A stretch of 46,600 nt of DNA. Source: a virus. Positions 8,642 through 33,856 of this stretch are shown piece by piece. Below the pieces are notes generated by a model. That model did not search any database, was not told where the DNA came from, and saw only the letters and a program-made list of their open reading frames with translations. Numbering within the stretch: position 1 is the first letter of the stretch; the number at the start of each line of letters is the position of its first letter. The stretch spans positions 1 through 46,600 of IMG/VR virus record IMGVR_UViG_3300037840_000088. One strand, written 5' to 3'. Position numbers and translations under genes: made by a program.

Positions 8642-9510
8642 TCGCGCGTCGCACCGTTCGCGGCATCCGTGATCCGACCCCCGGTGGCTATGTTATCGGC
8701 CGGGCCGCAGGGCGGTCGGCACAGCCGGGGCTCATCCCGCTGTCGGACTTGTCCAACGCGCTCGCCAACGCCAGCGGGGCGCCGACATCGGGCTCCTCCT
8801 CGACCGGCATCGGCACGCAGGGGGCTACTGGCGCGACAGGTTTGACCGGAGCCACCGGCGCAACCGGAGTAGTAGGGGTCACAGGCGCGACAGGTTTGAC
8901 CGGAGCCACCGGCGCAACCGGAGTAGTAGGGGTCACAGGCGCAACCGGGGTTGTGGGTGTCTCGGGAGCCACCGGCGCTACTGGACCAGCAAACCCCGCG
9001 TGGGTAGCCAAGGGCGATTTAATCCAAGGCGGCGCCGCGGCTTGGCAAGTCCTAGCGCCAGGGAGTGCTAACCAGGTGCTTCTTTCGGGCGGTGCTGGTG
9101 CGCTCAATTCGTGGGGGCAGGATAAGGCCGCCAATCTCAGCGACTACGCGACAGGATCATGGACGCCATCGGACCAAAGTGGCGCCAGCTTAAGTTTTAC
9201 TGGAGTGGACGCAGGGTACACTCGTATTGGTAATATGGTATTTGCATATTGCACTTTGCAGTATCCGGTAACTGCAAGCGGCGCTGTTGCGGTTATTGGT
9301 GGTCTGCCTTACACAGTGGCTAATCGCAGTGGTGCAGTTTTACCTCAACCCATAATATCGGCTAATATAAATACTCCAGGGGTTCTGCTCTATACAGTAA
9401 AAAATACTACAACATTTAAGATATATAATGAAAATACTCTTGCGTTTGTATTAAATTCGACGCTGAGTAATGACGCTTTTAATTTTGGAATTGTTTATCC
9501 AATAGCCTAG
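8638..9510 (+). CDS. Collagen-like tail fibre / adhesin
   Basis: 290 aa, ATG overlapping the upstream stop (ATGA). Residues 1-60 are a short head region. Residues about 61-118 are Gly-X-Y repeats with Thr in the third position (GATGATG, GLTGATG, GVVGVTG), a collagen-like trimeric stalk common in phage fibres. Residues 119-180 resemble the linker found after such stalks (KGDLIQG, then NQVLLSGG), and residues 180-290 form a probable beta-rich tip. The DNA of the last 300 bases is strikingly AT-rich with A/T third positions, unlike the stalk, which suggests that the receptor-binding tip was swapped in. The 3' end overlaps the convergent glycosyltransferase gene by 32 bases. Confidence 0.75.
8830..8937 (+). 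repeat. 54-bp perfect tandem repeat in the collagen-like stalk
   Basis: Two consecutive identical 54-bp units (8830-8883 and 8884-8937) encode 18 residues, six Gly-X-Y triplets each; a third, diverged partial unit follows from 8938. Identity at the DNA level implies recent duplication or gene conversion. Copy number here could vary between isolates or be miscounted by short reads. Confidence 0.9.
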
Positions 9511-16216: not shown

Positions 16217-16584
16217 GGCTTGATGATCTCGCCGGTGTCGATGTCTTCGTAAGGCGCCTGCTTGGTGCGCACATGCGACTTGATGAAGTAGCGGACCTTC
16301 GGCGTCGAGGTGAAGTCCTTGGTCACGAACTCGGTCGGCCCATAGGGGAAAACGCCCATCTCTCGGCACATGTCGTTGAAGGCCAAGGTCGCCTGCGTGA
16401 CGAACCGCTGCCGCACCTCGGCGCGAATGAGCTGATCGGTCTGCACAAATTGCAGCGGAGACATCGCCTTGCCGCGTTCGATCGCCCGATCACGGGCAAA
16501 GGTCGGCGGCACCAGCACCAGCGGGATTTCGATTTCCAACCCTGGCGCTCGGATGCCGCAGACTTCGATGGGCTCGACGATCAT
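16213..16584 (-). CDS. Conserved-looking hypothetical protein of the replication operon
   Basis: 123 aa, ATG 16584 overlapping the polymerase stop (ATGA), stop overlapping the nuclease start (GTGA). No membrane segment, no signal, no motif I recognise. It begins with a beta-rich section (residues 1-27), a helical centre (about 30-78) and a basic C-terminal third. The double four-base overlap between polymerase and resolvase-like nuclease shows it is translated with them, so a polymerase accessory or DNA-binding role is likely but unproven. Confidence 0.65.
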   Translation of the reverse strand: MIVEPIEVCGIRAPGLEIEIPLVLVPPTFARDRAIERGKAMSPLQFVQTDQLIRAEVRQRFVTQATLAFNDMCREMGVFPYGPTEFVTKDFTSTPKVRYFIKSHVRTKQAPYEDIDTGEIIKP

Positions 16585-18632
16585 TTCCTGTATCTATCTC
16601 CCACCCATTCTTCAACCTCGATGGGTATGCCGATCCGGTCAGACCACTCGGTCGGCTGCGCCATCAACTGCTTGAACCGTAGCACATCGGCTTTCGCCTT
16701 GTCAAGTTCAACGACGATCTCGTCATGCACCGTGAGCACCACCGGCATACCAGCCTGCTCCAGCCGATCGATGGCGGCGCACAGCAGCCCACGCGCCAAA
16801 CCTTGCACGACGTTCTCGGTGAGAAGGCCCCCGTACATGCTGCGGCGAACCCACTTGCCGTTCTTGGAAGTCCACGAGAACCAGCACTCGCGGTCGGTCA
16901 CCGGCGAGATGCCAAGCTCGGGCCGATAGTACCATAGCTTCTGCCAGCCGCTCGGCAGCGATGCGGTGATGAAGTCGCCCTCGCGCCGGTAGACCACGCC
17001 ATAAGCCTCATGCGCCCGGCCGGTCTTCACGGCCTTAAGCGCGGCGTCCTGCAGCCCATACCACAGCTCCGGCACCTTCGGCGCCCAGTCATGCCGGTAG
17101 GTCTCGATCACCTCCGCGGCGAAACTAAGCGGTTGCTTCGGGCAGTAGCGCTCGTGAAACCGATCAGTCCCCATCTGAAAGCCACAGCCCAACACTGTGT
17201 TCTTGCCGATCGTGCGCTCGACCACGTTGGCCTTGGTCAGGGAGCCCGGCGGTCGGTTGTAGATGCGGTGGGCAACATCAAGATACACATCCTGACCGGA
17301 GGCCATGAGAGCGGTCTTGTCGTGTTGACCAGCAAGAGCCAAAACAACACGAGCCTCGATCCCCGCGTAATCTCCCACCAGAAAGACCTTATCTGGGTCG
17401 GGGATAAGCGCGTGCCGCAGACTATCCGCCACGCACTGAATTGCATTTGCATGGACTACCTCGCCGGTTTCGCTGTCAACATAGGTGCCGACCGAGCGCT
17501 CGACCACGGCCGGGTCGCCCGACATGATCGCCGCTACGGTTTGCTCGACCGTGATCCCCTTGCGTTTCCAGTCGCCGCGCGGGAAGTTCTGCGGCTGGAT
17601 GATCCTGCCGCCCCAACGGCCGGGGCCGGCAGCGTGGTACTGCAGGAGCCCTCGGGCTCGGCCGTCGTAGCCGACGCAGGCGAGCATGGTGTCGAGCTTG
17701 GTGATGGAGGAGCTGCCCAGCATCGACCGGATTTCCAGCATTCGCCGCACATCAGGCCGCCCCAGCACTCCAACGTCATCCCATTTCGGCAATTCGTCAG
17801 AAGTATCGGCATTGCTTTCGTATCCGGCATCATCCACCTCCTGCTCGCCCAATAGTTTGGCGATCGTTTCCTTCTGCATGTCGGGAACATAGACCCCGCG
17901 TAGCGCGCACCATTCGCCGAGCTTCGCTACCTGTCCCGGCTCGATGCCGCCGGTGATTTCCTTGAACTCCTCCAGCAAAGGACCCTTTGCCAAAGCGACA
18001 ACCCGCTGCGCTGCCCGCACAAAATCCAAATCAATACGGACACCGCGTTGATTAATCTGTTGGTCATAGAGCCACACCTTTCGCTCGTTACGGGATTGCT
18101 GAGATATCAAGCCAATACGCTCGCGAAGTTCACCTTCGACAACAACATCTTGCGCGCAGTAGGCCGAGACCTTCGCCATAATCTCAGACGTGATGGCGGG
18201 CAAATTGCCGTGCTTATCCGGCCGGCTGAGGCCGATCGTCAGCTTGTTGCCAACTTTGTCCTTCTCACCGCGGAGACCAAGAGCCCGCTGGGCGCGGTCG
18301 AGCGCCAGGGGTATGCCCTTCCAGGCGCACGCGGCCATCGTGCAGTCCCACCGCTCAGGGGGCAAGGGCGGGAAGCCATACTGCTGAACCATGATCCAGC
18401 GCCAGATGGCCTGCTCGAACCCGGCATTGTGGGCGACGAACATCACTTCGGGGTCGTCTATCAGCATCGGCAGATCATCGCTATCGAAGCAGGGCCGCCA
18501 CTCGGCTTTGCCCCGCTCGCGATACCGGGCGACTAGCACCTGGGTCGAAGCATCCTGCGCATAGCGATCGGCGCCGACCACTTTGAGATCGGCGAGAGAA
18601 ACGGTCTCAAAGTCGAAGTCGATGAGGATCAT
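16581..18632 (-). CDS. Family A DNA polymerase with 3'-5' exonuclease domain
   Basis: 683 aa from ATG 18632 with GAGG four bases upstream. The exonuclease domain starts at once with DFDFETVS (Asp7, Glu9), followed by HNAGFEQ and YCAQDVVVEGEL. The polymerase domain contains motif A GDYAGIEARV (Asp421), motif B RTIGKNTVLGCGFQMG (Arg473, Lys477, Phe485 at the position equivalent to Klenow Phe762) and motif C LTVHDEIVVE (Asp637, Glu638). All catalytic residues are present, so this is the phage replicase with proofreading; there is no 5'-3' nuclease domain. It is encoded with SSB-like, Cas4-like, helicase and resolvase-like genes, a combination common in phages outside the T7 group. Confidence 0.95.
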   Translation of the reverse strand: MILIDFDFETVSLADLKVVGADRYAQDASTQVLVARYRERGKAEWRPCFDSDDLPMLIDDPEVMFVAHNAGFEQAIWRWIMVQQYGFPPLPPERWDCTMAACAWKGIPLALDRAQRALGLRGEKDKVGNKLTIGLSRPDKHGNLPAITSEIMAKVSAYCAQDVVVEGELRERIGLISQQSRNERKVWLYDQQINQRGVRIDLDFVRAAQRVVALAKGPLLEEFKEITGGIEPGQVAKLGEWCALRGVYVPDMQKETIAKLLGEQEVDDAGYESNADTSDELPKWDDVGVLGRPDVRRMLEIRSMLGSSSITKLDTMLACVGYDGRARGLLQYHAAGPGRWGGRIIQPQNFPRGDWKRKGITVEQTVAAIMSGDPAVVERSVGTYVDSETGEVVHANAIQCVADSLRHALIPDPDKVFLVGDYAGIEARVVLALAGQHDKTALMASGQDVYLDVAHRIYNRPPGSLTKANVVERTIGKNTVLGCGFQMGTDRFHERYCPKQPLSFAAEVIETYRHDWAPKVPELWYGLQDAALKAVKTGRAHEAYGVVYRREGDFITASLPSGWQKLWYYRPELGISPVTDRECWFSWTSKNGKWVRRSMYGGLLTENVVQGLARGLLCAAIDRLEQAGMPVVLTVHDEIVVELDKAKADVLRFKQLMAQPTEWSDRIGIPIEVEEWVGDRYRK

Positions 18633-19593: not shown

Positions 19594-20808
19594 CTAACCC
19601 GGGGGCGCGATCTTGTCAAGCGGGAAATCGACCGTCACCGCTTTTCTTCGGTCACTCATCGGCACCACGCTGTAGCCCGCGTCCGGCTTGTAGGCATACT
19701 CGGCGACCAGTTCCTTGGCGCGCGGCCCGAGACCCTCGAACTGCGCTGGCGACAAGAACTTCGGCTGCGAGTAGAGCATGTCGACCGTGTTGTGCTTCGA
19801 CCAGTCAGCAAGGATCGCGGCCTCCGCGTCGGTCTTCCAGATACGGTCAGCCAGCTTGACGACCACCTTCCAGCCGGGCAGCTCCTCCCGGCGGATGGCG
19901 ATGCGCGTGTAGGCCTCGTTCTCCAATTCCTTGGCGAGCATACGGAGCACCTTCGGCCCCGTCTCCAGCAGCGCCAAAAGAGCCGGCGTCGTCAGTTCCT
20001 TGATGCCCTCAGCGCCGAGCGCGGCGATGCTCGTGCCGGTCGACAGCATGGGCGCACAGAATTTCTTGACCGGGCAGAAGCGACACCACTCGCCCATCTT
20101 GAAGATACCCTCGGTGGTCGCCAGCATGGCCGGGCGCAGTTCCTCCTCGGCCCACTTGCGCAGCCGGCCGGCGCTGGTTACCCAGGAGCGGATCGGCCCG
20201 TCAGGGTGCTCGGCGCGCGGCTGCACAATGGTCAGCTTCACCAGGTTGCTGTCGGTGAGCCGCGGCCGGGTCTCGGGCCAGCTCGGGCCGTCGATTGCCA
20301 TGAAGGCGTAGCCCATGCACTGCCGGTTCCGCTCCACCTCGACGATCACGCCCTGACCGTGCTTGTAGTCGACGCACTCCAGCGCGATCGAGGGCTCGGG
20401 GTAGAACAGCAGCACGTCGGCTTGGCCGTAGGCGGCGTCGTGAAATGCCGGATGAGAGATCGGCGTCTCGACCATCATGCCGGCCTTGCCGACACGCTCG
20501 CGCACATAGTCGACCGCAGTCTGCACTGCGAGCATCATGTCTTCAGTCACGTCGGGGCAGATGGCCGGGTCGACGAGCACGGCGTCGGTGCCGGTAGTCA
20601 GGCACTCGGCGAGAACCGCGTGCGCCTGGACGCCATCCTTGCGATAGTCGGGGTCGTCATGCGCCAGCTCACCGGCGCCGCCCATTGTCTTGATAAGGTT
20701 GACCGAGGCGGAGCACTCGAAGTAGCGCTCGGCCTGCGACATCCCGAGAGGGCTATGCCCTTTAGAAGGGAGGGAAGATGGGGTACGATCCTGGTCCGTC
20801 ATCGTCAT
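19594..20808 (-). CDS. DUF2800-type Cas4-like nuclease with Fe-S cluster cysteines
   Basis: 404 aa from ATG 20808, chosen because AAGG lies six bases upstream; other in-frame ATGs a few codons earlier are possible. The nuclease core is visible as YGQADVLLFYPE (Asp131) followed by LECVDYKHGQG (Glu144, Asp147, Lys149), a PD-(D/E)XK RecB/Cas4-type site. A Cys32 near the start and the triad GEWCRFCPVKKFC (Cys242, Cys245, Cys251) match the split 4Fe-4S cluster of Cas4/AddB nucleases. DUF2800 proteins occur beside DUF2815 SSB and family A polymerase in many phages and are thought to process DNA ends in replication or recombination. The last 120 residues are of unknown role. Confidence 0.85.
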   Translation of the reverse strand: MTMTDQDRTPSSLPSKGHSPLGMSQAERYFECSASVNLIKTMGGAGELAHDDPDYRKDGVQAHAVLAECLTTGTDAVLVDPAICPDVTEDMMLAVQTAVDYVRERVGKAGMMVETPISHPAFHDAAYGQADVLLFYPEPSIALECVDYKHGQGVIVEVERNRQCMGYAFMAIDGPSWPETRPRLTDSNLVKLTIVQPRAEHPDGPIRSWVTSAGRLRKWAEEELRPAMLATTEGIFKMGEWCRFCPVKKFCAPMLSTGTSIAALGAEGIKELTTPALLALLETGPKVLRMLAKELENEAYTRIAIRREELPGWKVVVKLADRIWKTDAEAAILADWSKHNTVDMLYSQPKFLSPAQFEGLGPRAKELVAEYAYKPDAGYSVVPMSDRRKAVTVDFPLDKIAPPG

Positions 20809-20935
20809 TGTCATCCTTGTTTCGCCCCGCGTCATGCAGGATCGTGAGCAGCGCGACTACGATAAAGCAGACCCCGGCGAGCAGCGCCCATAGCAGCGTT
20901 CGCCACTCCTCCGGGGTCATCTCATGCGGTTGCAT
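20762..20935 (-). CDS. Small membrane protein (57 aa) overlapping the Cas4-like gene
   Basis: 57 aa from ATG 20935, which shares one base with the upstream TAA (TAATG). One transmembrane helix (about residues 13-36, WALLAGVCFIVVALLTIL) is followed by an acidic stretch (KDDNDDDG) and an aromatic-proline end. The last 47 bases overlap the Cas4-like gene in another frame, which explains why it is easily missed. A membrane protein in the middle of a replication operon could tether or regulate replication; function unknown. Confidence 0.55.
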   Translation of the reverse strand: MQPHEMTPEEWRTLLWALLAGVCFIVVALLTILHDAGRNKDDNDDDGPGSYPIFPPF

Positions 20936-22235: not shown

Positions 22236-22369
22236 CACCGTCTCCTAAAGCCACAATACCGCGGCCGGCGCTCAAACCCTACGATCCGCTTCCATTTCTG
22301 CCCCTTAACCCGAAAAGAAACAGACCGCCCCCACCCCGGAGTTTTCCACCACCACACGCTGATTGGCAT
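22235..22369 (-). CDS. 44-aa Trp/Arg-rich basic peptide coupled to the helicase
   Basis: 44 aa from ATG 22369 with AGGAG six bases upstream. The ATG overlaps the helicase stop (TGATG) and its own TGA overlaps the next start (TGATG), so it is coupled on both sides. Composition is extreme: five Trp, many Arg/Lys, nearly no acids (MPISVWWWKTPGWG, ending RRPRYCGFRRR). This suggests nucleic-acid or membrane binding, perhaps a helicase cofactor. It is too short for most gene finders. No homologue known to me. Confidence 0.55.
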   Translation of the reverse strand: MPISVWWWKTPGWGRSVSFRVKGQKWKRIVGFERRPRYCGFRRR

Positions 22370-24003
22370 CACCATCTCCTATCCAAAGCACGATCGGTAA
22401 TTTGCGCCTTCCTCAGCGCCGACGCTAGAACTTTTTCGCTGATCGAACCAGGTGCAACGAACAAGTCGGCCTGTACGGCGCAGAGCTGTCCGTCTCGGTA
22501 AAGCCGGTCCACACACTGCTCGTTGTTTCCATGAACCCAATCCGGCTCGACGATGAGACAGTGCGAGGCAACATGCTGCAGTCCGTCGGTGCCTGTTCCA
22601 AGTGACAGGACGTTTCCAAGAATGACGCGAAGCTTATCCTGTGCAACATAGAGCTGGACCTTTTTGTCCTTGGAGAGCGCGCTGTCGCGCCCGTCGACCC
22701 GAACCACACCATATCTTGCCAAACCAGCCTGCAGAATGTCAAGCACCTCGATGTGCCAGGCGAACAGCACGATCTTGTCCTCGCCGCCGCGGAGCAACGT
22801 CTCGCACCACTTGACCGCCTGCGGAGCTATCGCCAGACCCATCTCGCGCCGTGCGCTGGCGATGTGGCCTAGAGCAGCGGCGTCTTTTCCCGTAAAGGTC
22901 TCAGGGTCGATGTCAAGCAAACGTTCTGCAGCAAGGGCCGCCTTGACGGTGGCAGTTTCCTCCACTCGGATAAGGTCATAGATTGGCGGCAAGGTATTGG
23001 GCATGGCGTCCGCCTTCTTATGTCGGCACATGAAATGAGCGCGCAGCCGGTTTTGGAACTCGGGAACCCGGCCAATGCTTTCAGTCTGGTAAGCCTTTCT
23101 GACCGTGGCGCCCGAGGCGTCTGTTCCACTGACATTGTGCAGCTCCACTGAATTGTACTTCTCGTCGAAGTCATCCCGCGACATGAATTCGATTGCCTGC
23201 CAGCACAGATGCCGACTAAGCACATAGCCTTCTCGCGGCCGATTGGGCAGCGGGGTGCCAGTCAGCGCGAGCACGCGCTTAGATCGCTCGATCAAGGGCT
23301 CCGCTGCGAGGGCATGTCCGCCACCAAACACGCTTCGCGTGCGCTTGGCGTCCTCCTCCTTCGCAAAGTGCGCTTCGTCGAGGATCAAGAGATCGAACTG
23401 TTCTTTTGCAAGCGCTCTCCACAAACCAGGATGATGAACTAAATTCCACGAAATAATGATCCACCGGCGACCGGCGTCCAACCCATACCGAGAAGAACGG
23501 ATAATCATGCCATCGGCGGGGCCAGTGCTCCATTCCTTGATCTTCCTCATCCATTGGAAGCGGATCGACGCAGGGCATACCACACAAATCTTGCGCGCCT
23601 GCATCTCGTTCGCCACGACAATCGCGGTCGGCGTCTTGCCGCAGCCCGGCGGGTCGGCATCGAGCGCGTGCTCGCGCGCCAGGATGTACTCGACATCGGC
23701 GGCCTGGAATTGGTACAGCTCGCGCTCGGCCGGCACATCGAAGTGCCGCTTGCACCCCAGCGTGCGTGAAAGGTCAATCTGAGCCGTGATGTGGATCAGC
23801 GCAGCCTTGGCGCGCTCGGTGGCGTGATCGGCGAAGCTCGCCGCGGCGTAGGGCTCGCGCGTGAACAGCATGGCGGTCGACGAGGTGCTGCCGGCGGCCG
23901 AAAAGTTCAATCCGTGCTCAACCATCAAATCGCGCGGGTTGCCCTCGGCGCGCGGATAGTAAAGCACGAACGTCTGGTTTGCTGAATTGAAGTCGAGCTT
24001 CAA
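22369..24003 (-). CDS. SNF2-type superfamily 2 helicase / ATPase
   Basis: 544 aa if started at TTG 24003, whose TTGA overlap with the upstream stop mirrors other junctions here; ATG 24075 would add 24 unlikely residues. The N-terminal 90 residues are a substrate domain. The ATPase core has Walker A DADPPGCGKTPTA (from about residue 116), CVVCPASIRFQW (motif Ia), LILDEAHFAKE (motif II), LALTGTPLPNR (motif III), VLFAWHIEVLDIL, and QCVDRLYRDGQ (motif VI). SNF2-like helicases of this type accompany DUF2800 nuclease, SSB and family A polymerase in phages and probably remodel forks or remove bound proteins. All ATPase motifs are intact. Confidence 0.85.
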   Translation of the reverse strand: MKLDFNSANQTFVLYYPRAEGNPRDLMVEHGLNFSAAGSTSSTAMLFTREPYAAASFADHATERAKAALIHITAQIDLSRTLGCKRHFDVPAERELYQFQAADVEYILAREHALDADPPGCGKTPTAIVVANEMQARKICVVCPASIRFQWMRKIKEWSTGPADGMIIRSSRYGLDAGRRWIIISWNLVHHPGLWRALAKEQFDLLILDEAHFAKEEDAKRTRSVFGGGHALAAEPLIERSKRVLALTGTPLPNRPREGYVLSRHLCWQAIEFMSRDDFDEKYNSVELHNVSGTDASGATVRKAYQTESIGRVPEFQNRLRAHFMCRHKKADAMPNTLPPIYDLIRVEETATVKAALAAERLLDIDPETFTGKDAAALGHIASARREMGLAIAPQAVKWCETLLRGGEDKIVLFAWHIEVLDILQAGLARYGVVRVDGRDSALSKDKKVQLYVAQDKLRVILGNVLSLGTGTDGLQHVASHCLIVEPDWVHGNNEQCVDRLYRDGQLCAVQADLFVAPGSISEKVLASALRKAQITDRALDRRW

Positions 24004-24443
24004 ATGACCTGGCCCGCTTGCGGCTGAACCCTCCAGCCTTGGGGCGTAGGCTCGATCAACTCTAACCGACGCCATGCGCCGTTAAGAGTATGCACTGGCC
24101 CCACCCAACACAGCTTACCAAAATGATCGGTCTTCCAACGCCCCTCGACTGGCTCATCGGCGTTCGCTAGACAACCGCAAGAGCCATAGCGCTGGTGCCC
24201 GTACCTAAGGGCCTCCCCACACCCTTGACCGTGCGCAGCACACGTAACTGCGCCGGTGCGTAGCGCTCGCTGGTTAGCGACCGGCGCACTTGCGGGCTGT
24301 AGCCACGATAGATCAGGAGCACGTTGCCTTTCTTGTCCTTGATGGCGCGCTCGGGTGTATCGCTCAAACGCACCACGCGCCGCTGCGGATGCGGCCATGA
24401 ATAACCAGGCGTCATGCGGCGCTGTGATTTCCAGATGCCCCAT
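24000..24443 (-). CDS. C-terminal frame of a probably frameshifted gene
   Basis: Open frame of up to 147 aa. From about 24218 to the stop at 24000 it has good coding character: RYGHQRYGSCGCLANADE, GRWKTDHFGKLCWVGP, NGAWRRLELIEPTPQGW, with a possible metal-binding His/Cys set. Upstream of 24218 the same frame is a low-quality shadow of the 108-aa frame at 24167-24493. No start codon lies between 24398 and this good part. A minus-one shift at the G-run 24215-24218 would join the two into one 164-aa protein spanning 24000-24493. Alternatively GGAGG ten bases before ATG 24443 makes this an independent overlapping gene. Confidence 0.45.
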   Translation of the reverse strand: MGHLEITAPHDAWLFMAASAAARGAFERYTRARHQGQERQRAPDLSWLQPASAPVANQRALRTGAVTCAAHGQGCGEALRYGHQRYGSCGCLANADEPVEGRWKTDHFGKLCWVGPVHTLNGAWRRLELIEPTPQGWRVQPQAGQVI

Positions 24444-25419: not shown

Positions 25420-27282
25420 ATGTCAACGCTGCTCGACGCCGCCATCGCCTACGCCGAGCGCGGCTGGCACATATTTCCCCTCAACGGCAAGGTGCCCTAC
25501 AGCGGATCGCGCGGCGAACACGACGCCACCAACGATATCGAGCGGATCAAGACCTGGTGGACCGAGCACCCCGACGCCAACATAGGCTGGCGCCTTGGCG
25601 CGGATGGCTATTGTGCAATCGACCTGGACGACAAGCACGGAAAAACCGGCTATCTCGAATGGGAAAAACAAGTCGGCGAGAAGCCCGACACGCTGACCCA
25701 TCGCACGCCAAGCGGCGGTATCCACCTAATCTATCGCGGGGAGCTTCGCGCCAGTCAATCGGCAATCGCTCGCGGCATCGACACGCGCGGGAAGACTGGC
25801 TATATCGCGCTACCACCATCCCCAGGGTATGCAAAAATTCTTCACGCCGAGCCGGCGCCGGTGCCACAGTGGGTTATAGATGCCCTGGTTCAAACCGAGC
25901 GCGGCGAGCGTGCCCCGCTCAACTTCACGGAGGACACAGATGAAGCAGAAGCATTGGCACATTACCATATCCGTCTTTGCCTGGACCGGAGCGGTCCTCC
26001 TGTCCCTGGCGATCGCGATACCCGCGGGTATCTCCTCGCGCTCGATCTCAAGGACGACGGCCTCAGTCCAGAACGAGCAATCGAATTGCTCGAAACCGAG
26101 TGGGGTTGCGACCACGATCTTGCGCGGGACAAGGTAGCCTCGGCTTGGGCCGACCGCGGCAGCAACAAGAACGAGCCTGGCTGCAACCTCACCAACAACG
26201 GGCTGCGCCACGCCGCCGGCCTTGGCAATATCAACGATTTTGAAATGCCGGGGGCGGAGAATAAGGAGCGTAATCTCCGCTTCAAACTCGCCAGCCCGAC
26301 CGAGCAGCGCGACACACCGCCGCCGTCCTATTGGGATGAACACCGCGGCGCGCATTGCATCTTCCCCAAGCAGCAAGGCGGCCTGACGATCCTGGTTCAA
26401 GGCGAGAAGGGCTCGCACAAAACGGGCGTCTGCATCTACGAATGTCTAGAGGCGATCCAGCGCCAGGGGGCGAAGGTGCTCTACTTCGCATTGGAGGGCG
26501 CGCAGGGCATAATGACGGCGCGCTTGCCGCAAGCCCTAGCCGCTCGTGGTATGTCGACGGATGACGTTGAAGATAGCTGGCGCTTGTTGCCGATCGGTCT
26601 CAACATGACGCTGGCGAGCGAGCGTAAGCAGTTGATCGGCGATCTTCGCGCCCAAGAGTTCGAACCCGATATCATCGTGATCGACGTGCTGACGCGCGCC
26701 CTCGGCGGTATCGACATCAACAGCCCGGCCGCAGGGATGGCGATTGCCGACGGCGCGGATCACCTCGGCCGGGCGTTTAACGCCAGCGTCCTACTCGTCA
26801 CGCACCCTGGCAAGGACAAATCGCGCGGCGTCATCGGTAGCAGCCTGCAAGGATCACTTGGATATGCGGTCTGGGAAATCAGCCATGAAAGCGGTTTGGT
26901 GACGCTCAACCTCGCGTACATGAAGGATGGGCCAGCAGAGTTCAATACGTTGTATGACGTGGTGATGACGCCCGCGCCAGTGATAAGCGAGGCGGTAGAG
27001 CAGCCCTACAGCCGGCCGAAAGCGGGCAGAGCGGTCAGCGGCCTAGGACTGCAGGCGCAGATACGAGCCGTGCTTGATCGCAACCCCGGCCGGACCTTCG
27101 ACGATAAGGAAATGGCGGAAAAGCTGGCACCGTATGATGACGGGTCAAGCGATTTGCTAAAGCAACTGCGGAACGCGCATCGACCGACATCGGCCGCGGT
27201 GTTCAGAGAAATGGGCGCCGCGGTCCTCAATGGCGAAAACCGCGGCGCGCAGTGGCGATGGGGTGCCCGCTTGGCGCTATAG
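25420..27282 (+). CDS. PrimPol-helicase fusion (replicative primase-helicase)
   Basis: 620 aa from ATG 25420. Residues 1-150 are a bifunctional primase-polymerase domain: AIAYAERGWHIFPL, CAIDLDDKHG with Asp68 and Asp70, and SGGIHLIYRGE with His102, the DxD...H site of archaeo-eukaryotic primases. From about residue 310 a RecA/AAA_25 (RepA-like) ATPase follows: GEKGSHKTG (Walker A, 328-336), YFALEGAQGI, IIVIDVLTRAL (Walker B, Asp422), LLVTHPGKD, RGVIGSSLQGS. The last 100 residues resemble a winged-helix tail. It would prime and unwind phage DNA. It is the only rightward gene inside the leftward early region, with its own promoter. Confidence 0.9.
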   Translation: MSTLLDAAIAYAERGWHIFPLNGKVPYSGSRGEHDATNDIERIKTWWTEHPDANIGWRLGADGYCAIDLDDKHGKTGYLEWEKQVGEKPDTLTHRTPSGGIHLIYRGELRASQSAIARGIDTRGKTGYIALPPSPGYAKILHAEPAPVPQWVIDALVQTERGERAPLNFTEDTDEAEALAHYHIRLCLDRSGPPVPGDRDTRGYLLALDLKDDGLSPERAIELLETEWGCDHDLARDKVASAWADRGSNKNEPGCNLTNNGLRHAAGLGNINDFEMPGAENKERNLRFKLASPTEQRDTPPPSYWDEHRGAHCIFPKQQGGLTILVQGEKGSHKTGVCIYECLEAIQRQGAKVLYFALEGAQGIMTARLPQALAARGMSTDDVEDSWRLLPIGLNMTLASERKQLIGDLRAQEFEPDIIVIDVLTRALGGIDINSPAAGMAIADGADHLGRAFNASVLLVTHPGKDKSRGVIGSSLQGSLGYAVWEISHESGLVTLNLAYMKDGPAEFNTLYDVVMTPAPVISEAVEQPYSRPKAGRAVSGLGLQAQIRAVLDRNPGRTFDDKEMAEKLAPYDDGSSDLLKQLRNAHRPTSAAVFREMGAAVLNGENRGAQWRWGARLAL

Positions 27283-28993: not shown

Positions 28994-29722
28994 CTAGACG
29001 GCCTTGGACCGGACCTTTACGCCCTCATCCGTTGACGGCGCTGGCTTGCCGTGAACCGTTTCGAGCCGATCGATGCACTCGGCAATCTCGGCATTGGTAT
29101 GTGGCAGGTTGCCGAGCGCCAAGCCCGTTTGCCGCTCATGAACCAAAGCCTTCGCCGCCCATAGGACCATGTGATAATCGCGCGGCGTGATTGGCGCGGC
29201 GTGCGGCCATCCGGTGCCGCGAACACCGTGCAAGGGCTCGGCGGCGACGGCCGTTGGCTTGCGAACCTGCCCGTGAAAATGAGGCAAGTCGATTTGCCAG
29301 TCTGGCTCAACCACGCCATCGATCACGCCATGCTCGGCGCGAGTGAGCCGGGTTTTTGCCGCGCCTATCTCATGCTCGGCAAACATGGTGCTATCGCCAG
29401 TACCAGCGTGCGGGTTTTCCGTCTCTAAGCAATGACCGCGCGCGACGCCATCGCTGTGAACCACGTATACGTCTTGCATCGCGGTGTGATCCAACAGCCA
29501 ACGGATTAGGTTGAACGTGGCGTCATCCGACAGCGACGCGACGCGATAGACGTAAACAGGTTCCTCCGCGCCGCGCCATCCGCCGGTTTGCAGCGAGCGA
29601 GTGAAGCCCAACGCGGCGGTATAGAGCCGCGTCTCGAATGTCTCGCGGCATTCCGGCGACACACAGCCATCAACGAGATGGAAAATAGTCTCGGCGCCTA
29701 GGTTGTCAATGCGGTGTTTCAT
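28994..29722 (-). CDS. Hypothetical early protein (242 aa)
   Basis: 242 aa from ATG 29722, GAGGAG and AGGA upstream, ATGA overlap with the preceding gene. N-terminal half looks like a compact alpha-beta domain (TIFHLVDGCVSPECRETF, then VYVYRVASLSDDATFNLI, QDVYVVHSDGVARG). The C-terminal half is helical (DYHMVLWAAKALVHE). It is the largest gene of the early small-gene cluster and the second from its promoter. I do not recognise a family; no membrane segments. Confidence 0.6.
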   Translation of the reverse strand: MKHRIDNLGAETIFHLVDGCVSPECRETFETRLYTAALGFTRSLQTGGWRGAEEPVYVYRVASLSDDATFNLIRWLLDHTAMQDVYVVHSDGVARGHCLETENPHAGTGDSTMFAEHEIGAAKTRLTRAEHGVIDGVVEPDWQIDLPHFHGQVRKPTAVAAEPLHGVRGTGWPHAAPITPRDYHMVLWAAKALVHERQTGLALGNLPHTNAEIAECIDRLETVHGKPAPSTDEGVKVRSKAV

Positions 29723-29904
29723 CGTCCTAACTCCTCTCGTTTGGCGGTATTGCGAATAATTTCGATGGATTGCAAGCGCTCGCATTCGCGACGAAGGCCT
29801 TGCACGCTAGCGACAGCCCATTGATAGCCGATACGGTACTGGTCGCTTCGTGCGGCCATCAACAGCACGTCTTTTAGATCGGAAAGTGTTAACTCTGTAT
29901 CCAT
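29719..29904 (-). CDS. Promoter-proximal early protein (61 aa)
   Basis: 61 aa from ATG 29904 with GGGAG and AGGA upstream; the sequence GAGTTAGGA before this start is repeated before the next gene. Helical and charged (LTLSDLKDVLLMAAR, then LRRECERLQSIEIIRN). First gene of the leftward early operon, next to the control region. A small regulator is possible; no helix-turn-helix is evident. Confidence 0.55.
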   Translation of the reverse strand: MDTELTLSDLKDVLLMAARSDQYRIGYQWAVASVQGLRRECERLQSIEIIRNTAKREELGR

Positions 29905-29932
29905 CGATCCTAACTCCCATTGCTAACGCGCC

Positions 29933-29962
29933 AGTATGCGCATAGGTGCTGATTAAATGCAA
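29933..29962 (-). promoter_or_regulatory. Leftward sigma70-like early promoter
   Basis: On the leftward strand TTGCAT (29962-29957) is separated by 18 bases from CATACT (29938-29933), a four-of-six -10 match. Transcription would begin near 29926, about 22 bases before the start of the 61-aa gene. Two copies of GCTAACGCG (29922-29930 and 29966-29974) flank it, as an operator pair would. Confidence 0.45.
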
Positions 29963-29974
29963 GAGGCTAACGCG

Positions 29975-30332
29975 AGCGATAATCAGCAAACGAAATCAAT
30001 GTTGTAGGCTGAAAATCATTTCGAGTTTTGTCGACGTAATTTTATTGCGCGAGATTTGCTTAAATTAGCCTATAGGTTGCGCTCAATCGCGTGCTCAATT
30101 CACCTATTGGATAGCGTGCTCAATCGGTGCTCAATCGGTGCTCAATCGTCGTAAGTGGTTGTAAACATTGTGCTCAATGCGTGCTCAATCGGTGCTCAAT
30201 GGTTCCGTGCTCACTGAGCACAAGCGCTTGTGCAGCTACCTGCCAGCGCAGTGCAGGAGGAAAGCGTCATTGAGTATGCTTCCCTCCCCTATCTGGCGAT
30301 TAGTAGTCGCAATCGCCCCTGGCGCAACCTAG
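29975..30332. other. Gene-free control region, candidate replication origin
   Basis: No convincing gene lies between the early promoter and the hairpin at 30333. From about 29985 to 30080 the DNA is AT-rich, as expected of an unwinding element. From 30081 to 30233 it carries phased repeats and palindromes (listed separately). A well-placed AGGAGG (30255-30260) precedes a 20-codon frame starting TTG 30270 or ATG 30276, too short and unmatched to call a gene. Confidence 0.6.
30081..30233 (+). repeat. Helically phased GTGCTCAATCG iteron-like array with palindromes
   Basis: The core GCTCAAT occurs at 30081, 30093, 30118, 30129, 30140, 30172, 30183 and 30194, with a diverged copy (GCTCACT) at 30209. 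Two trios are spaced exactly 11 bp (30118/30129/30140 and 30172/30183/30194) and the trios are 32 bp apart, about three helical turns, so all sites can face one side of the helix. GTGCTC-ACT-GAGCAC (30207-30221) is an inverted repeat, and GCACAAGCGCTTGTGC (30218-30233) is a perfect 16-bp palindrome. This is the layout of replication-initiator iterons or of a cooperative operator. Confidence 0.8.
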
Positions 30333-30361
30333 ACCAGCCATTCGCTATTGGCGAAGCTGGT
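30333..30361 (-). terminator. Hairpin at the end of the 67-aa leftward gene
   Basis: ACCAGC (30333-30338) and TTCGC (30341-30345) pair with GCTGGT (30356-30361) and GCGAA (30351-30355), an 11-bp stem with a two-base bulge and five-base loop. It ends on the stop codon of the leftward gene 30361-30564 and would separate that transcript from the repeat array. No strong U-tract, so termination is inferred from position. Confidence 0.45.
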
Positions 30362-30564
30362 TAACTAAGAAATCGCGTGAAGAAAATTGCATCCTCGCCG
30401 ATCGTGATCGTTTCGCCTAGCCCGACATCCATCAAGGCGTCGATGAGTTGAGGATACATCTCGCCGAACTCGGAATGGACTTGCGTAAGCGTGGCATTGC
30501 GCACGACGCCATGCTGTTCGATTTCAATTCGATATGGCTTACGCTGCCGATTGCGCCGCATCAT
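30361..30564 (-). CDS. Small hypothetical protein beside the control region (67 aa)
   Basis: 67 aa from ATG 30564 with AGGAG eight bases upstream; the longer in-frame version from 30690 overlaps the operator-like repeats and is rejected. Basic N-terminus (MMRRNRQRKPYRIEIEQ) followed by an acidic/hydrophobic rest (YPQLIDALMDVGLGETITIGEDAIFF). Divergent from the small terminase gene and flanked by repeats, it may be a regulator acting on them, though no DNA-binding fold is obvious. Followed by a hairpin. Confidence 0.6.
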   Translation of the reverse strand: MMRRNRQRKPYRIEIEQHGVVRNATLTQVHSEFGEMYPQLIDALMDVGLGETITIGEDAIFFTRFLS

Positions 30565-30622
30565 CTGACTTGCTCCTATCTCGTGCTGGCCTACCCAACA
30601 CACCGCCACCATTATGACCCTC

Positions 30623-30890
30623 GCTAACAGCGTTATGTCAATCCGGTATCCGCGCAACATTCTTGCGTTGTTGGCGTGGTCGCGCAACATTCTTGCGCAA
30701 GATTATTGCGTGCTGTTAGCTGGTGTCATTCTAAAAGACCGGGGTGCCGGGGTGCCGCCCCGAGTGATATGGTCGCGCGAAAATTTTCACCTAGCACTCA
30801 AATATAGCGGAGATCGCCAGAAATATCATGCTAACAGCGTTAGCTTTGTTGCGAAATCGGGATCGATATCTTGAAAATCTGGCCGCTAAC
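30623..30890. repeat. GCTAACAGCGTTA operator-like repeats
   Basis: Copies: GCTAACAGCGTTA at 30623-30635, GCTAACAGCA inverted at 30711-30720, the perfect palindrome-like GCTAAC-AGC-GTTAGC at 30830-30844, and GCTAAC at 30885-30890. Two shorter relatives (GCTAACGCG) lie at 29922 and 29966. All are in the two non-coding intervals that bracket the control region and its promoters, so they look like binding sites of one regulator. Confidence 0.55.
30651..30698 (+). repeat. 17-bp direct repeats with 30-bp period
   Basis: CGCGCAACATTCTTGCG occurs at 30651-30667 and 30681-30697, start to start exactly 30 bp. Each unit contains an inverted repeat (CGCAA...TTGCG), giving further dyads; the second continues into TTGCGCAA and a promoter-like stretch that recurs before 34551. 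Likely a promoter/operator for the rightward virion genes. Confidence 0.6.
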
Positions 30891-30905
30891 ACGTAGCTAT
30901 CCTGG

Positions 30906-31430
30906 ATGACAAATGAACTGATACGCCCCGAACGAGACCTCGGACCCGCGATGCGCGCCCTTTCCGGCCGGGAGCGGGAGTTCGTGTGGGCGCTTTACAC
31001 CCCCGGTCTCCAGAGCGCTGTCGACGCGATCCGTCTGACGAGCTACGCGAGCGAGAGCGAGGGTTCGATGCGGGTGCAGGCCCACCGGCTGATGCACCGC
31101 CCTAGCGTCATCGACGCGATCATAGAGGAGAACCGGGCGCTGGTCAACGTGAAGACACCGTTCTATATGCGTGCGCTGGAGGCCATCGCTTTCGACACGG
31201 GCCACAAGGACCAGCGCGGTGCTCTCAACGATCTGCTACAGCGCGGCCACATGGCGGCGGTGGTCAAGGTCGAGCACAAAAAGGTGCCGAGCGACGCCGA
31301 AGCCAAGGCCGAAGCCATCGCCGCGGCCAAGCGTCTGGGCTACCCACTTGACAAGCTGGGTATTGTGGTTGATGCTGAGTACACCGATATCACCCCTGAT
31401 GTCGATTCCTTGGAGGGAGTACCCCTGTGA
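30906..31430 (+). CDS. Terminase small subunit (by position)
   Basis: 174 aa from ATG 30906; the ribosome site is weak. The N-terminal 60 residues have a helix-turn-helix-like layout seen in small terminases (LSGREREFVWALYTPGLQ, then LTSYASESEGSMRVQAHRLMHRPSVIDAI), followed by an oligomerisation helix and a charged C-terminal region. Small terminases bind the packaging start site and hand DNA to the large subunit, encoded 830 bp downstream. It opens the rightward virion operon next to the operator-like repeats. Ends with EGVPL and couples to the next gene by GTGA. Confidence 0.7.
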   Translation: MTNELIRPERDLGPAMRALSGREREFVWALYTPGLQSAVDAIRLTSYASESEGSMRVQAHRLMHRPSVIDAIIEENRALVNVKTPFYMRALEAIAFDTGHKDQRGALNDLLQRGHMAAVVKVEHKKVPSDAEAKAEAIAAAKRLGYPLDKLGIVVDAEYTDITPDVDSLEGVPL

Positions 31431-31753
31431 GCACGCCTTGGTATAATCGCCCGGAGAACAAGCACCAGGCCGCGGTCGCCGCTCTGACCAAGAAATACAA
31501 GGAAGACCTCGCCGCGCTCAACGCGGGCGCGCTGGGCTCCGAGGCAGCCCGACACCGCAGCCGTGCGTTCGTGCCCCCGGACGGCGGCGAGCGAGTGGGC
31601 GACGTCAATCCGCCCCGGCCGCCGAGCTACACGCACGCCACCATCCCTGGCGCACTGGCGGTGCGGGAGGGCGAGCGGGACAGCGCAGGGCAGTTCATTC
31701 TCGGTGATCGCGACAACGCTGGTCAGTTTGTCGACCCGGAGGTTCCTCTTTGA
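31427..31753 (+). CDS. Hypothetical protein (108 aa) in the terminase operon
   Basis: 108 aa from GTG 31427 (GTGA overlap), with GGAG seven bases upstream inside the terminase gene. Hydrophilic and proline-rich, with an N-terminal helix (HQAAVAALTKKYKEDLAALNAG) and a disordered rest. Two similar short motifs (DSAGQFILGDRD, DNAGQFVDPE) occur near the end, and it finishes EVPL. No family recognised. Confidence 0.6.
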   Translation: MSTPWYNRPENKHQAAVAALTKKYKEDLAALNAGALGSEAARHRSRAFVPPDGGERVGDVNPPRPPSYTHATIPGALAVREGERDSAGQFILGDRDNAGQFVDPEVPL

Positions 31754-32260: not shown

Positions 32261-33856
32261 ATGCTTCCTACCCACGACAGTATGGGGGCGGTCGCCGCTG
32301 ACCTGGAAGTCGTCGAGCGCTATCTCAAGTTTCACGCTTTCGACCGGATCGCGGCGCAGCTCTACCCCAAGCAGCGCGAGTTCATTGCCCTCGGCGGCGA
32401 CCCCGATATCTACGAGCGGATGTTCTCGGCCGGCAATCAGTTCGGGAAGTCCGATACTGGCGCCTTCGAGATGGCCTGCCACCTGACTGGCAACTATCCG
32501 AGCTGGTGGGAAGGCTATCGCTTCGACCGGCCGATCAAGGCATGGGCCGCCGGGCCGTCGGGCGGTATGGTGCGCGGCGCCGGGCAGACCAAGCTCTTCG
32601 GCGATCCGATGATCGAGGAAGACTTCGGCACCGGCTTCATTCCGCGGCACCTGATCGTCGGGAAGCCGACCCAGGCCCGCGGTGTGCCGGGGCTCTACGA
32701 TACCGCCCAGGTCCGGCACAAGAGCGGAGGCATCTCGACCGTTCGCTTTATGACCTACGAGATGGAGCGGTACGTTTGGCAGGGCGCTCCTATCGACCTG
32801 ATCTGGTTCGACGAAGAACCGACGATGGACCTCTATTCCGAAGGTCTGGCGCGGCTCGGCGCGACCAAGGGCAAATGCTATATGACGTTCACCCCACTGA
32901 AGGGGATGAGCGAAGTGGCGACCCGGTTCTTCCGGCCGGCCGACTACGGCGCGCTCCATCGGCGCTTGCTCATCATGGACATCGAGGACTGCCCACACAT
33001 GCTGCCGGAGCTGGAGAAGCTCAAGGCGCAGTACCCCGAGTGGCAGTGGCCGATGCGTATCCATGGCATCCCGAATATGTCGGAGGGCCAGATTTTCACG
33101 ACGCCGGAAGCGAACCTGCGTTGGCAGTGCATTGACTTTGCTGCGATCCCGGCGCACTACGCGAAGATATGGGGGATCGACTTCGGGACCGGCCACCCAT
33201 TTGCAGCGGTGCTCTACGCGATCGACCGCGAGCGGGGCTCGATGAATGCCTACGTGCGCGAAGTGCAGGCCAATGTGCCGGAGGAGTTTCGGCCGAAGAA
33301 CACGTCGCGGATGATCGCTGGCAGCGGCCATGCTTACCTGCTGCAGGCGCTCCGCATGGAAGGTATGGGTATCAACGATCACGTCGCGGCGATGAACCAG
33401 GTGGCCCGCGGGGTGCCGGTGGCGTGGCCCAGGGACGGCCACAACCGCATCAACGACGGCGGCGGCCTGGCGCAGATGGCGGAAATCTACCGGCGCGCTG
33501 GGCTCAACATGCTCGGGACGCACGCCAAGTATGACGACCAGAAGCACACCTACAGCACCGAGGCAGGTATCGCTGATCTCGACTACTCGATGCGGCTGGG
33601 GATGTTCCATGTCAACGAAAACTGTGAAAAATGGTTTGGGGAGTACCGCAATTATCGACGTGAGGTGCCGAAGAACGGCGGGTCTGCCCAAATTGTGAAG
33701 AAGGGCGATGACCTTATGTCGGCAACTCGGATCGGCTGGATGGCCCGCCGGTTTGCGGTGCCGATGCCGCTGGGCAGCCGCGCTGTCTCGCAGTGGGCGG
33801 GTGGCCAGGAGGCGAACCTGGCACGCGCCGCGGAGTATGACCCGCTGCGTCGTTGA
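32261..33856 (+). CDS. terL: Terminase large subunit
   Basis: 531 aa from ATG 32261. ATPase domain: Walker A-like SAGNQFGKSDTG (residues 56-67), Walker B IDLIWFDEEP (178-187) with catalytic Glu, and coupling motif YMTFTPLKGMSE (207-218). Nuclease domain from about residue 300: WGIDFGTGHPF with Asp307 as the first metal ligand, and a later acidic set near DLDYSMRLG. It powers DNA packaging through the portal and cuts genome ends. The variant phosphate loop and TxxKG coupling motif resemble P22/T7-related podovirus terminases. End type (cos, pac or terminal repeat) cannot be read from the protein. Confidence 0.93.
   Translation: MLPTHDSMGAVAADLEVVERYLKFHAFDRIAAQLYPKQREFIALGGDPDIYERMFSAGNQFGKSDTGAFEMACHLTGNYPSWWEGYRFDRPIKAWAAGPSGGMVRGAGQTKLFGDPMIEEDFGTGFIPRHLIVGKPTQARGVPGLYDTAQVRHKSGGISTVRFMTYEMERYVWQGAPIDLIWFDEEPTMDLYSEGLARLGATKGKCYMTFTPLKGMSEVATRFFRPADYGALHRRLLIMDIEDCPHMLPELEKLKAQYPEWQWPMRIHGIPNMSEGQIFTTPEANLRWQCIDFAAIPAHYAKIWGIDFGTGHPFAAVLYAIDRERGSMNAYVREVQANVPEEFRPKNTSRMIAGSGHAYLLQALRMEGMGINDHVAAMNQVARGVPVAWPRDGHNRINDGGGLAQMAEIYRRAGLNMLGTHAKYDDQKHTYSTEAGIADLDYSMRLGMFHVNENCEKWFGEYRNYRREVPKNGGSAQIVKKGDDLMSATRIGWMARRFAVPMPLGSRAVSQWAGGQEANLARAAEYDPLRR

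What the first reader, a model, noticed from the sequence alone, without database searches (positions are those of the whole stretch)
30081..30233. Helically phased iteron-like array with two overlapping palindromes: candidate origin
Nine GCTCAAT-type sites, six of them in two trios with exact 11-bp spacing and 32 bp between trios, lie next to AT-rich DNA and end in a 15-bp dyad overlapping a perfect 16-bp palindrome. No gene fits here. The array lies between the early leftward operon and the virion operon. Sites facing one side of the helix imply cooperative binding of one protein, such as a replication initiator or a master regulator. The motif matches nothing I know from other phages.
Basis: partly seen in the sequence, partly recalled or inferred. 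Interest (0 to 1): 0.78.

Follow-up and report, generated by a model that had tools for sequence, protein, structure and literature searches.

The report
Iteron array, likely phage replication origin
A non-coding stretch of an undescribed phage carries nine copies of a short DNA word, most spaced one helical turn apart and ending in a mirror-image copy; distant relatives have the same layout spelled with different words near their primase-helicase gene, so it is most likely where the phage starts copying its DNA.

Summary
In detail: seven exact GTGCTCAAT plus two one-mismatch copies at 30079-30215, two trios at exact 11-bp spacing with 32 bp between them, ending in a 15-bp dyad that overlaps a perfect 16-bp palindrome. 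It is far beyond chance. No known phage matches it.

The sequence is unique but the architecture is not. Four other phages that encode a PrimPol-helicase carry non-coding arrays of a different ~6-9 bp word, mostly 9-14 bp apart within clusters: G009, L150 (looser), L271 (Rhodospira MAG) and L272 (Desulfarculales MAG). In L272 and L271 the array starts 15 and 103 bp after the PrimPol-helicase gene. Inverted word copies belong to four of the five arrays. A 12-bp box, TTGNAAWCATTG, lies between the window's trios (30159-30170) and in the G009, L150 and L271 arrays.

Best reading: an iteron-type origin bound by the phage initiator, probably the PrimPol-helicase (confidence 0.6). Main rival: an activator/operator array for a leftward promoter at about 30035.

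Packaging is less likely: a separate conserved G-rich element (AAAAGACCGGGGTG, 30733) sits beside the terminase genes. GC skew cannot discriminate. Binding and origin activity are inferred, not shown.

The parts
30079..30215 (+). array of nine GTGCTCAAT-type direct repeats (sites start 30079, 30091, 30116, 30127, 30138, 30170, 30181, 30192, 30207)
30116..30146 (+). first trio, exact 11-bp spacing
30170..30200 (+). second trio, exact 11-bp spacing, 32 bp after the last site of the first
30159..30170 (+). box TTGTAAACATTG between the trios; matches TTGNAAWCATTG, also present in the arrays of G009, L150 and L271
30207..30221 (.). 15-bp dyad GTGCTCA-C-TGAGCAC: terminal inverted pair of the repeat
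30218..30233 (.). perfect 16-bp palindrome GCACAAGCGCTTGTGC overlapping the dyad
29978..30047 (.). AT-rich block (33% GC, second lowest 70-mer in the genome), candidate DNA unwinding element and/or promoter
29986..30000 (+). GCAAACGAAATCAAT, identical 15-mer in the array gap of relative L150
30035..30049 (.). CGTAATTTTATTGCG, a two-mismatch copy of the CGCAANATTNTTGCG dyad found in the divergent gap; overlaps a -10-like TAAAAT for leftward transcription (by eye)
25420..27282 (+). PrimPol (PF09250) + AAA_25 DnaB/RecA-type helicase with a poorly conserved C-terminal domain; candidate initiator
29719..29904 (-). 61-aa leftward ORF directly left of the array gap; no homologues found among relatives
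30361..30564 (-). 67-aa leftward gene right of the array; no homologues found among relatives
30653..30710 (.). three CGCAANATTNTTGCG dyads in the divergent gap (30653, 30683, 30696), similar ones seen by eye in several relatives; candidate shared operator
30733..30761 (+). conserved AAAAGACCGGGGTG G-rich element upstream of the terminase genes; candidate packaging/terminus signal, distinct from the array
30906..31430 (+). small terminase subunit candidate (alternative start 30951)
32261..33856 (+). large terminase subunit

Best explanation
The array is the initiator-binding part of the phage's replication origin, of the iteron type. Copies of one DNA-binding protein, most likely the phage's PrimPol-helicase through its variable C-terminal domain, bind head-to-tail to the 9-bp iterons. 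Within each trio the 11-bp step puts them on one face of the helix, and 32 bp (three turns) keeps the trios in register. The loaded array and the box between the trios organise the DNA so that the adjacent AT-rich block (29978-30047) melts and the primase-helicase is loaded to prime synthesis by the phage's own family-A polymerase. The terminal inverted pair (30207-30221) would bind two protomers facing each other and may serve as an operator or boundary. Shown here: the array, its spacing, the AT-rich neighbour, the terminal dyad, recurrence of the architecture with other iteron sequences in four other PrimPol-helicase phages, adjacency to that gene in two of them, and the shared box in four of the five arrays. 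Inferred: the identity of the binder, melting, and origin function.
For: Array and phase. Same architecture with different words: G009 GGTGGGGA, 12 copies, spacings 13,79,12,10,29,14,12,10,43,12,10; L271 TGCCCACA, 11 copies, 9,11,11,57,12,12,11,48,9,11; L272 TGCGAG, 18 copies (16 of them TGCGAGATT), mostly 9-14 with two 56-bp gaps; L150 GACCGG, 4 direct and 3 inverted. The array starts 15 bp (L272) and 103 bp (L271) after the PrimPol-helicase gene, 1.2-2.8 kb after it in L150, G009 and the window; all five encode PF09250/PrimPol homology + AAA_25, in two ORFs in L272. Inverted iteron copies in or at the end of the array in the window, L150, L271 and L272. Box TTGNAAWCATTG: 16 hits in 2.93 Mb held, six of them in the four array gaps; 0 of 20,000 letter-shuffled patterns hit three or more gaps. 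AT-rich block. Variable helicase C-terminus. Precedents: SaPI/SCC helicases recognise iterons directly downstream of their own gene (PMC7581432); the pRN1 PrimPol-helicase uses a site downstream of its gene (PMC4234260); cooperativity of Rep binding is lost when iterons are moved by half a turn (PMC4980987).
Against: Most of the 19 relatives tested have no comparably dense array, so either their origins look different or the array is not essential. The box was found by looking at these same arrays, so its shuffle test is optimistic; the preference for non-coding DNA among hits outside the arrays (6 of 10, with 12.6% of bases non-coding) is more independent. L272 lacks the box. The C-terminal domain of the PrimPol-helicase could not be assigned a fold (mean pLDDT 68; no match). 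In the window the array is 2.8 kb from the PrimPol gene. An 11-bp array also occurs next to a RecJ-like gene in L273, Marinobacter, where no PrimPol match was found. GC skew cannot separate origin from transcription direction. A promoter-like site with a dyad lies next to the array.
Confidence: 0.6

Rival explanations
1. Transcription control array: a phage-specific activator or repressor binds the phased sites upstream of a leftward promoter at about 30035 and switches the leftward replication operon; the terminal dyad is its strongest operator.
For: The array lies at about -45 to -190 of a -10-like TAAAAT overlapping CGTAATTTTATTGCG at 30035-30049 (promoter reading by eye). Motif repeats are common in the regulatory gaps of relatives. 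Minus-strand iterons read ATTGAGC, which can supply a -35-like TTGAGC with an 18-bp spacer to TATAGG (by eye).
Against: The consensus scan finds no promoter here. The divergent gap already carries a separate dyad that resembles those of relatives. Adjacency to the PrimPol gene in L271 and L272 is not predicted. Eight or more copies is more than a simple operator needs.
Confidence: 0.27
2. Packaging site (pac/cosB-like): the small terminase subunit binds the phased repeats, as at multi-repeat pac sites.
For: The array is about 700 bp from the small terminase gene; a few contigs (L248, L267) carry an 11-bp array directly upstream of the G-rich element; phiM5 has a 12/10-bp trio inside its terminal repeat.
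Against: A different, sequence-conserved element AAAAGACCGGGGTG sits beside the terminase genes in most family members and is 0.5 kb from the array. In G009 and L150 the array is 2-4 kb from the small terminase gene, and in L271 and L272 it is next to PrimPol.
Confidence: 0.07
3. Partition (centromere-like) array for plasmid-like maintenance, in the manner of ParR/parC-type short direct repeats bound by a small ribbon-helix-helix protein.
For: Clusters of one-turn direct repeats are the layout of such centromeres (own knowledge); two small unknown proteins of 61 and 67 aa flank the array.
Against: No ParA, ParM or other partition protein among the profile hits; the small proteins are not shared with the other array-bearing phages searched.
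Confidence: 0.03
4. RNA element in the leftward transcript (leader, attenuator or protein-binding RNA repeats).
For: The region folds better than shuffles on both strands (z -3.3 minus, -2.5 plus).
Against: No Rfam match; the palindromes and a flanking hairpin contribute much of the stability; helical phasing and recurrence with unrelated words point to duplex DNA binding.
Confidence: 0.03

Closest known systems
SaPI / SCC replication origins (Rep or Cch helicase with iterons directly downstream of its gene)
   Same: Short direct repeats downstream of or near the gene of an origin-binding helicase; in SaPIs the C-terminal domain of the helicase reads the iterons (PMC7581432)
   Different: Here the enzyme is an AEP PrimPol fused to an AAA_25 (DnaB/RecA-type) helicase, iterons are ~9 bp at one-turn spacing, and the window array is 2.8 kb from the gene
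Iteron plasmid origins (pPS10, F, R6K type)
   Same: Direct repeats for initiator monomers plus an inverted pair, as in the RepA operator of pPS10 (PMC4857107); AT-rich block alongside
   Different: Plasmid iterons are longer, about two helical turns apart (own knowledge); no Rep-type initiator gene recognised in this phage; no DnaA-box enrichment
pRN1 / PrimPol-helicase replicons
   Same: AEP primase fused to helicase, with an essential cis site downstream of the gene (PMC4234260)
   Different: The pRN1 site is a 100-bp stem-loop without iterons, and the helicase is SF3
Phage P4 alpha protein with its iteron origin
   Same: One protein combines primase, helicase and origin recognition (PMC4234260 discussion; own knowledge)
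   Different: P4 alpha has a Toprim-type primase; the P4 iteron sequence is unrelated (own knowledge)
LUZ24-like podoviruses and Sinorhizobium phage phiM5
   Same: phiM5 shares DNA polymerase, Cas4-like exonuclease, helicase and PrimPol genes in a leftward early block and a rightward terminase
   Different: Only 34-39% polymerase identity; no matching array; phiM5 has a three-copy CTGACAGC repeat inside its terminal repeat

Membership tests
Iteron-type replication origin | multiple direct repeats of one word in non-coding DNA | tested here: met
   9 copies, 7 exact; shuffles give at most 4 of any 9-mer
Iteron-type replication origin | regular, helix-phased spacing | tested here: met
   two trios at 11 bp, 32 bp apart; three outer sites out of phase
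Iteron-type replication origin | adjacent AT-rich unwinding element | tested here: met
   29978-30047, 33% GC, second lowest 70-mer of the genome; melting itself not tested
Iteron-type replication origin | linked initiator gene | tested here: inconclusive
   PrimPol-helicase 2.8 kb away in the window; 15 and 103 bp away in L272 and L271
Iteron-type replication origin | initiator binds the iterons | not testable with these tools
   no binding data; C-terminal domain without a recognised fold
Iteron-type replication origin | replication starts there | not testable with these tools
   no reads or coverage; GC skew not discriminating
Iteron plasmid (Rep/DnaA) origin | DnaA boxes in the origin | tested here: not met
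   no TTATCCACA within one mismatch near the array; whole window at chance level
Multi-repeat packaging site (pac/cosB) | repeats are the conserved site next to the terminase genes | tested here: not met
   the conserved element there is AAAAGACCGGGGTG at 30733, not the array
Multi-repeat packaging site (pac/cosB) | small terminase subunit binds the repeats | not testable with these tools
   no binding data
ParR/parC-type centromere | partition NTPase gene present | tested here: inconclusive
   no partition protein among profile hits for the genes scanned; not every gene was scanned
Known structured RNA | match to an Rfam family | tested here: not met
   no match up to E = 1 in 29400-31500

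The most novel reading that the evidence does not exclude
A widespread but unrecognised class of phage replication origins used by PrimPol-AAA_25 helicase phages: clusters of single-turn (about 11 bp) iterons whose sequence turns over completely between phages while the spacing, an inverted iteron and in most cases a TTGNAAWCATTG box are kept, read by the variable C-terminal domain of the primase-helicase.
Probability: 0.45. Interest if true: 0.72.

Novelty: new variant of a known kind. Interest (0 to 1): 0.58.

Why it matters
Origins of most uncultivated phages are unknown and cannot be found by sequence similarity because the repeats change from phage to phage. If architecture rather than sequence marks the origin beside PrimPol-helicase genes, origins can be predicted across many metagenomic phages, and the matching of a variable protein domain to a variable DNA word becomes testable. 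The comparison also exposed a separate sequence-conserved element beside the terminase genes that is probably the packaging signal of this phage family.

Tried and rejected
Searching for the motif itself: no match in named phages; of 27 viral contigs with two TGCTCAAT 11 bp apart, none has an array. DnaA boxes: chance level. GC skew as a decider: minimum broad and at the direction switch. Helical periodicity of all repeats in the relatives' gaps: not significant (vector strength 0.12 at 10.5 bp with 173 distances). The GCTAAC dyad near the divergent gap: at chance level genome-wide when mismatches are allowed. Structure of the PrimPol C-terminus: low confidence and no PDB match; a winged-helix reading of the alignment is only a guess. 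Searches for closer relatives with the polymerase, the L271 helicase and the L150 PrimPol gave none. One search was a mis-specified alignment and is not used. Rfam: nothing.

Full report
What is there. The window is a 46.6-kb virus record whose ends overlap by 127 bp, so it closes to a 46,473-bp circle. It is a podovirus-like phage with a family-A polymerase (16581-18632, minus), Cas4-like exonuclease (19594-20835), SNF2-type helicase (22369-24075), a PrimPol fused to a DnaB/RecA-type helicase (25420-27282, plus) and large terminase (32261-33856). Its nearest named relatives are distant: Sinorhizobium phage phiM5 at 34-39% polymerase identity, Rhizobium phage RHph_N2 and Microcystis phage MJing1 at about 38-41% terminase identity.

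The array. Seven exact GTGCTCAAT and two one-mismatch copies lie on the + strand at 30079-30215 with spacings 12, 25, 11, 11, 32, 11, 11, 15, then a 15-bp dyad and an overlapping 16-bp palindrome. Shuffles of the 456-bp gap never give more than 4 copies of any 9-mer. The array is non-coding. It lies between a 61-aa and a 67-aa leftward gene, one gene left of the divergent gap 30565-30905. To its left is the second most AT-rich 70-mer of the genome.

Relatives. The motif is unique: nothing in named phages and no array among 27 viral contigs sharing one 11-bp pair. Polymerase, helicase and genome-contig searches brought in a family with about 38-54% identity in these enzymes, plus L271 (41%) and the more distant L272 (30%). 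Gene prediction of my own (a simple codon-usage caller) shows the same layout: leftward early block with PrimPol, a gap, then the terminases.

Recurrent architecture. Dense non-coding arrays with other words occur in G009 (GGTGGGGA, 12 copies, clusters stepped 10-14 bp), L271, a Rhodospira MAG contig (TGCCCACA, 11 copies, 9,11,11 / 57 / 12,12,11 / 48 / 9,11), L272, a Desulfarculales MAG contig (TGCGAG, 18 copies, mostly 9-14 bp with 56-bp gaps) and, more loosely, L150 (GACCGG, 4 direct and 3 inverted). L163 has a three-copy 11,11 array followed at 32 bp by a one-mismatch copy, the same steps as in the window. The first four encode PrimPol + AAA_25. The first iteron is 15 bp after the PrimPol-helicase gene in L272 and 103 bp after it in L271; 1.2, 2.5 and 2.8 kb in L150, G009 and the window. 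Inverted copies of the word are part of the array in the window, L150, L271 and L272; in L272 they form the arms of a 40-bp terminal palindrome. Against this, of 19 relatives with this region covered most have only 4-5 repeats or none above shuffles.

A shared box. The spacer between the window's trios contains TTGTAAACATTG (30159-30170, overlapping the first base of the next iteron). The pattern TTGNAAWCATTG occurs 16 times in 2.93 Mb of held sequence; six hits are in the array gaps of the window, G009, L150 and L271, and 0 of 20,000 letter-shuffled patterns hit three or more of those gaps. I defined the pattern from these same sequences, so that test is optimistic. Of the other ten hits, six are non-coding although only 12.6% of bases are, and five of those six lie in gaps near the G-rich terminase-side element described below. 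L272 lacks the box. A 15-mer, GCAAACGAAATCAAT, is identical in the array gaps of the window (29986) and L150 and nowhere else held.

Candidate binder. The 61- and 67-aa proteins have no homologue among 1,069 predicted proteins of the window and its relatives (L271 and L272 were not in that set). The PrimPol-helicase is in every array-bearing phage; its primase and helicase parts align across the family while about the last 130-145 residues align poorly. Prediction of that part was weak and gave no PDB match; the helicase core matches RAD51, DnaB and KaiC folds. That the C-terminus reads the iterons is inference, by analogy with SaPI helicases that recognise iterons directly downstream of their own gene (PMC7581432) and pRN1, whose PrimPol-helicase has a C-terminal winged helix and a downstream origin candidate (PMC4234260). 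Iteron plasmids supply the logic of direct repeats plus an inverted operator (PMC4857107) and of phase-dependent cooperativity (PMC4980987).

Rivals. A dyad CGCAANATTNTTGCG, three copies of which are in the divergent gap, has a two-mismatch copy at 30035-30049 over a -10-like TAAAAT (promoter reading by eye, the consensus scan found none). The array would sit directly upstream, so control of leftward transcription is the strongest rival; both functions could coexist. Packaging is less likely because a different element, AAAAGACCGGGGTG at 30733, is conserved: in a scan of 2.9 million viral contigs the 16-mer AAAAGACCGGGGTGGG hit 42 stretches, most with a family large-terminase match 0.6-1.8 kb downstream. 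Partition and RNA readings have little support. GC skew has its detrended minimum at 31.66 kb but is flat from 29.5 to 33 kb and follows gene direction.

Verdict. Origin activity, binding and melting are untested.

Noticed in passing
window 30733-30761; L229-L270: AAAAGACCGGGGTG followed by G-runs or a G/C hairpin lies upstream of the terminase genes in most family members; the 16-mer AAAAGACCGGGGTGGG hits 42 viral contigs, most with a large terminase match 0.6-1.8 kb downstream. Probable packaging/terminus signal; I know of no description.
   Followed up: partly
L232, L234, L236, L240, L245, L263: Six fully held contigs end within about 450 bp upstream of that G-rich element, which would fit a physical genome end there; only a rough count was made.
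   Followed up: no
window 30653, 30683, 30696, 30035, 34501: Dyad CGCAANATTNTTGCG: 14 matches with up to 2 mismatches against 1.7 expected (palindromic sites counted on both strands), concentrated at three intergenic places; similar dyads seen by eye in the terminase-side gaps of several relatives. Candidate operator of a shared regulator.
   Followed up: partly
L154 rc 17830, 17873, 17906, 17937: Four TGGCAC[GA]NTTCTTGCA sites, matching the sigma-54 promoter consensus, in tandem directly upstream of the G-rich element of this relative.
   Followed up: no
L273 3819-4200: More than 20 copies of TTTAACCT-like repeats at an exact 11-bp period in a Marinobacter contig, near a RecJ/DHH-like gene; no PrimPol match found there.
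   Followed up: no
window 9391-9460: Lowest-GC 70-mer of the genome (21%) near the end of a tail fibre gene where the rightward and leftward blocks converge.
   Followed up: no
L035 275-310: phiM5 has a CTGACAGC trio (12, 10 bp) inside its left terminal repeat and further CTGACA/TGTCAG palindromes upstream of its right one.
   Followed up: no
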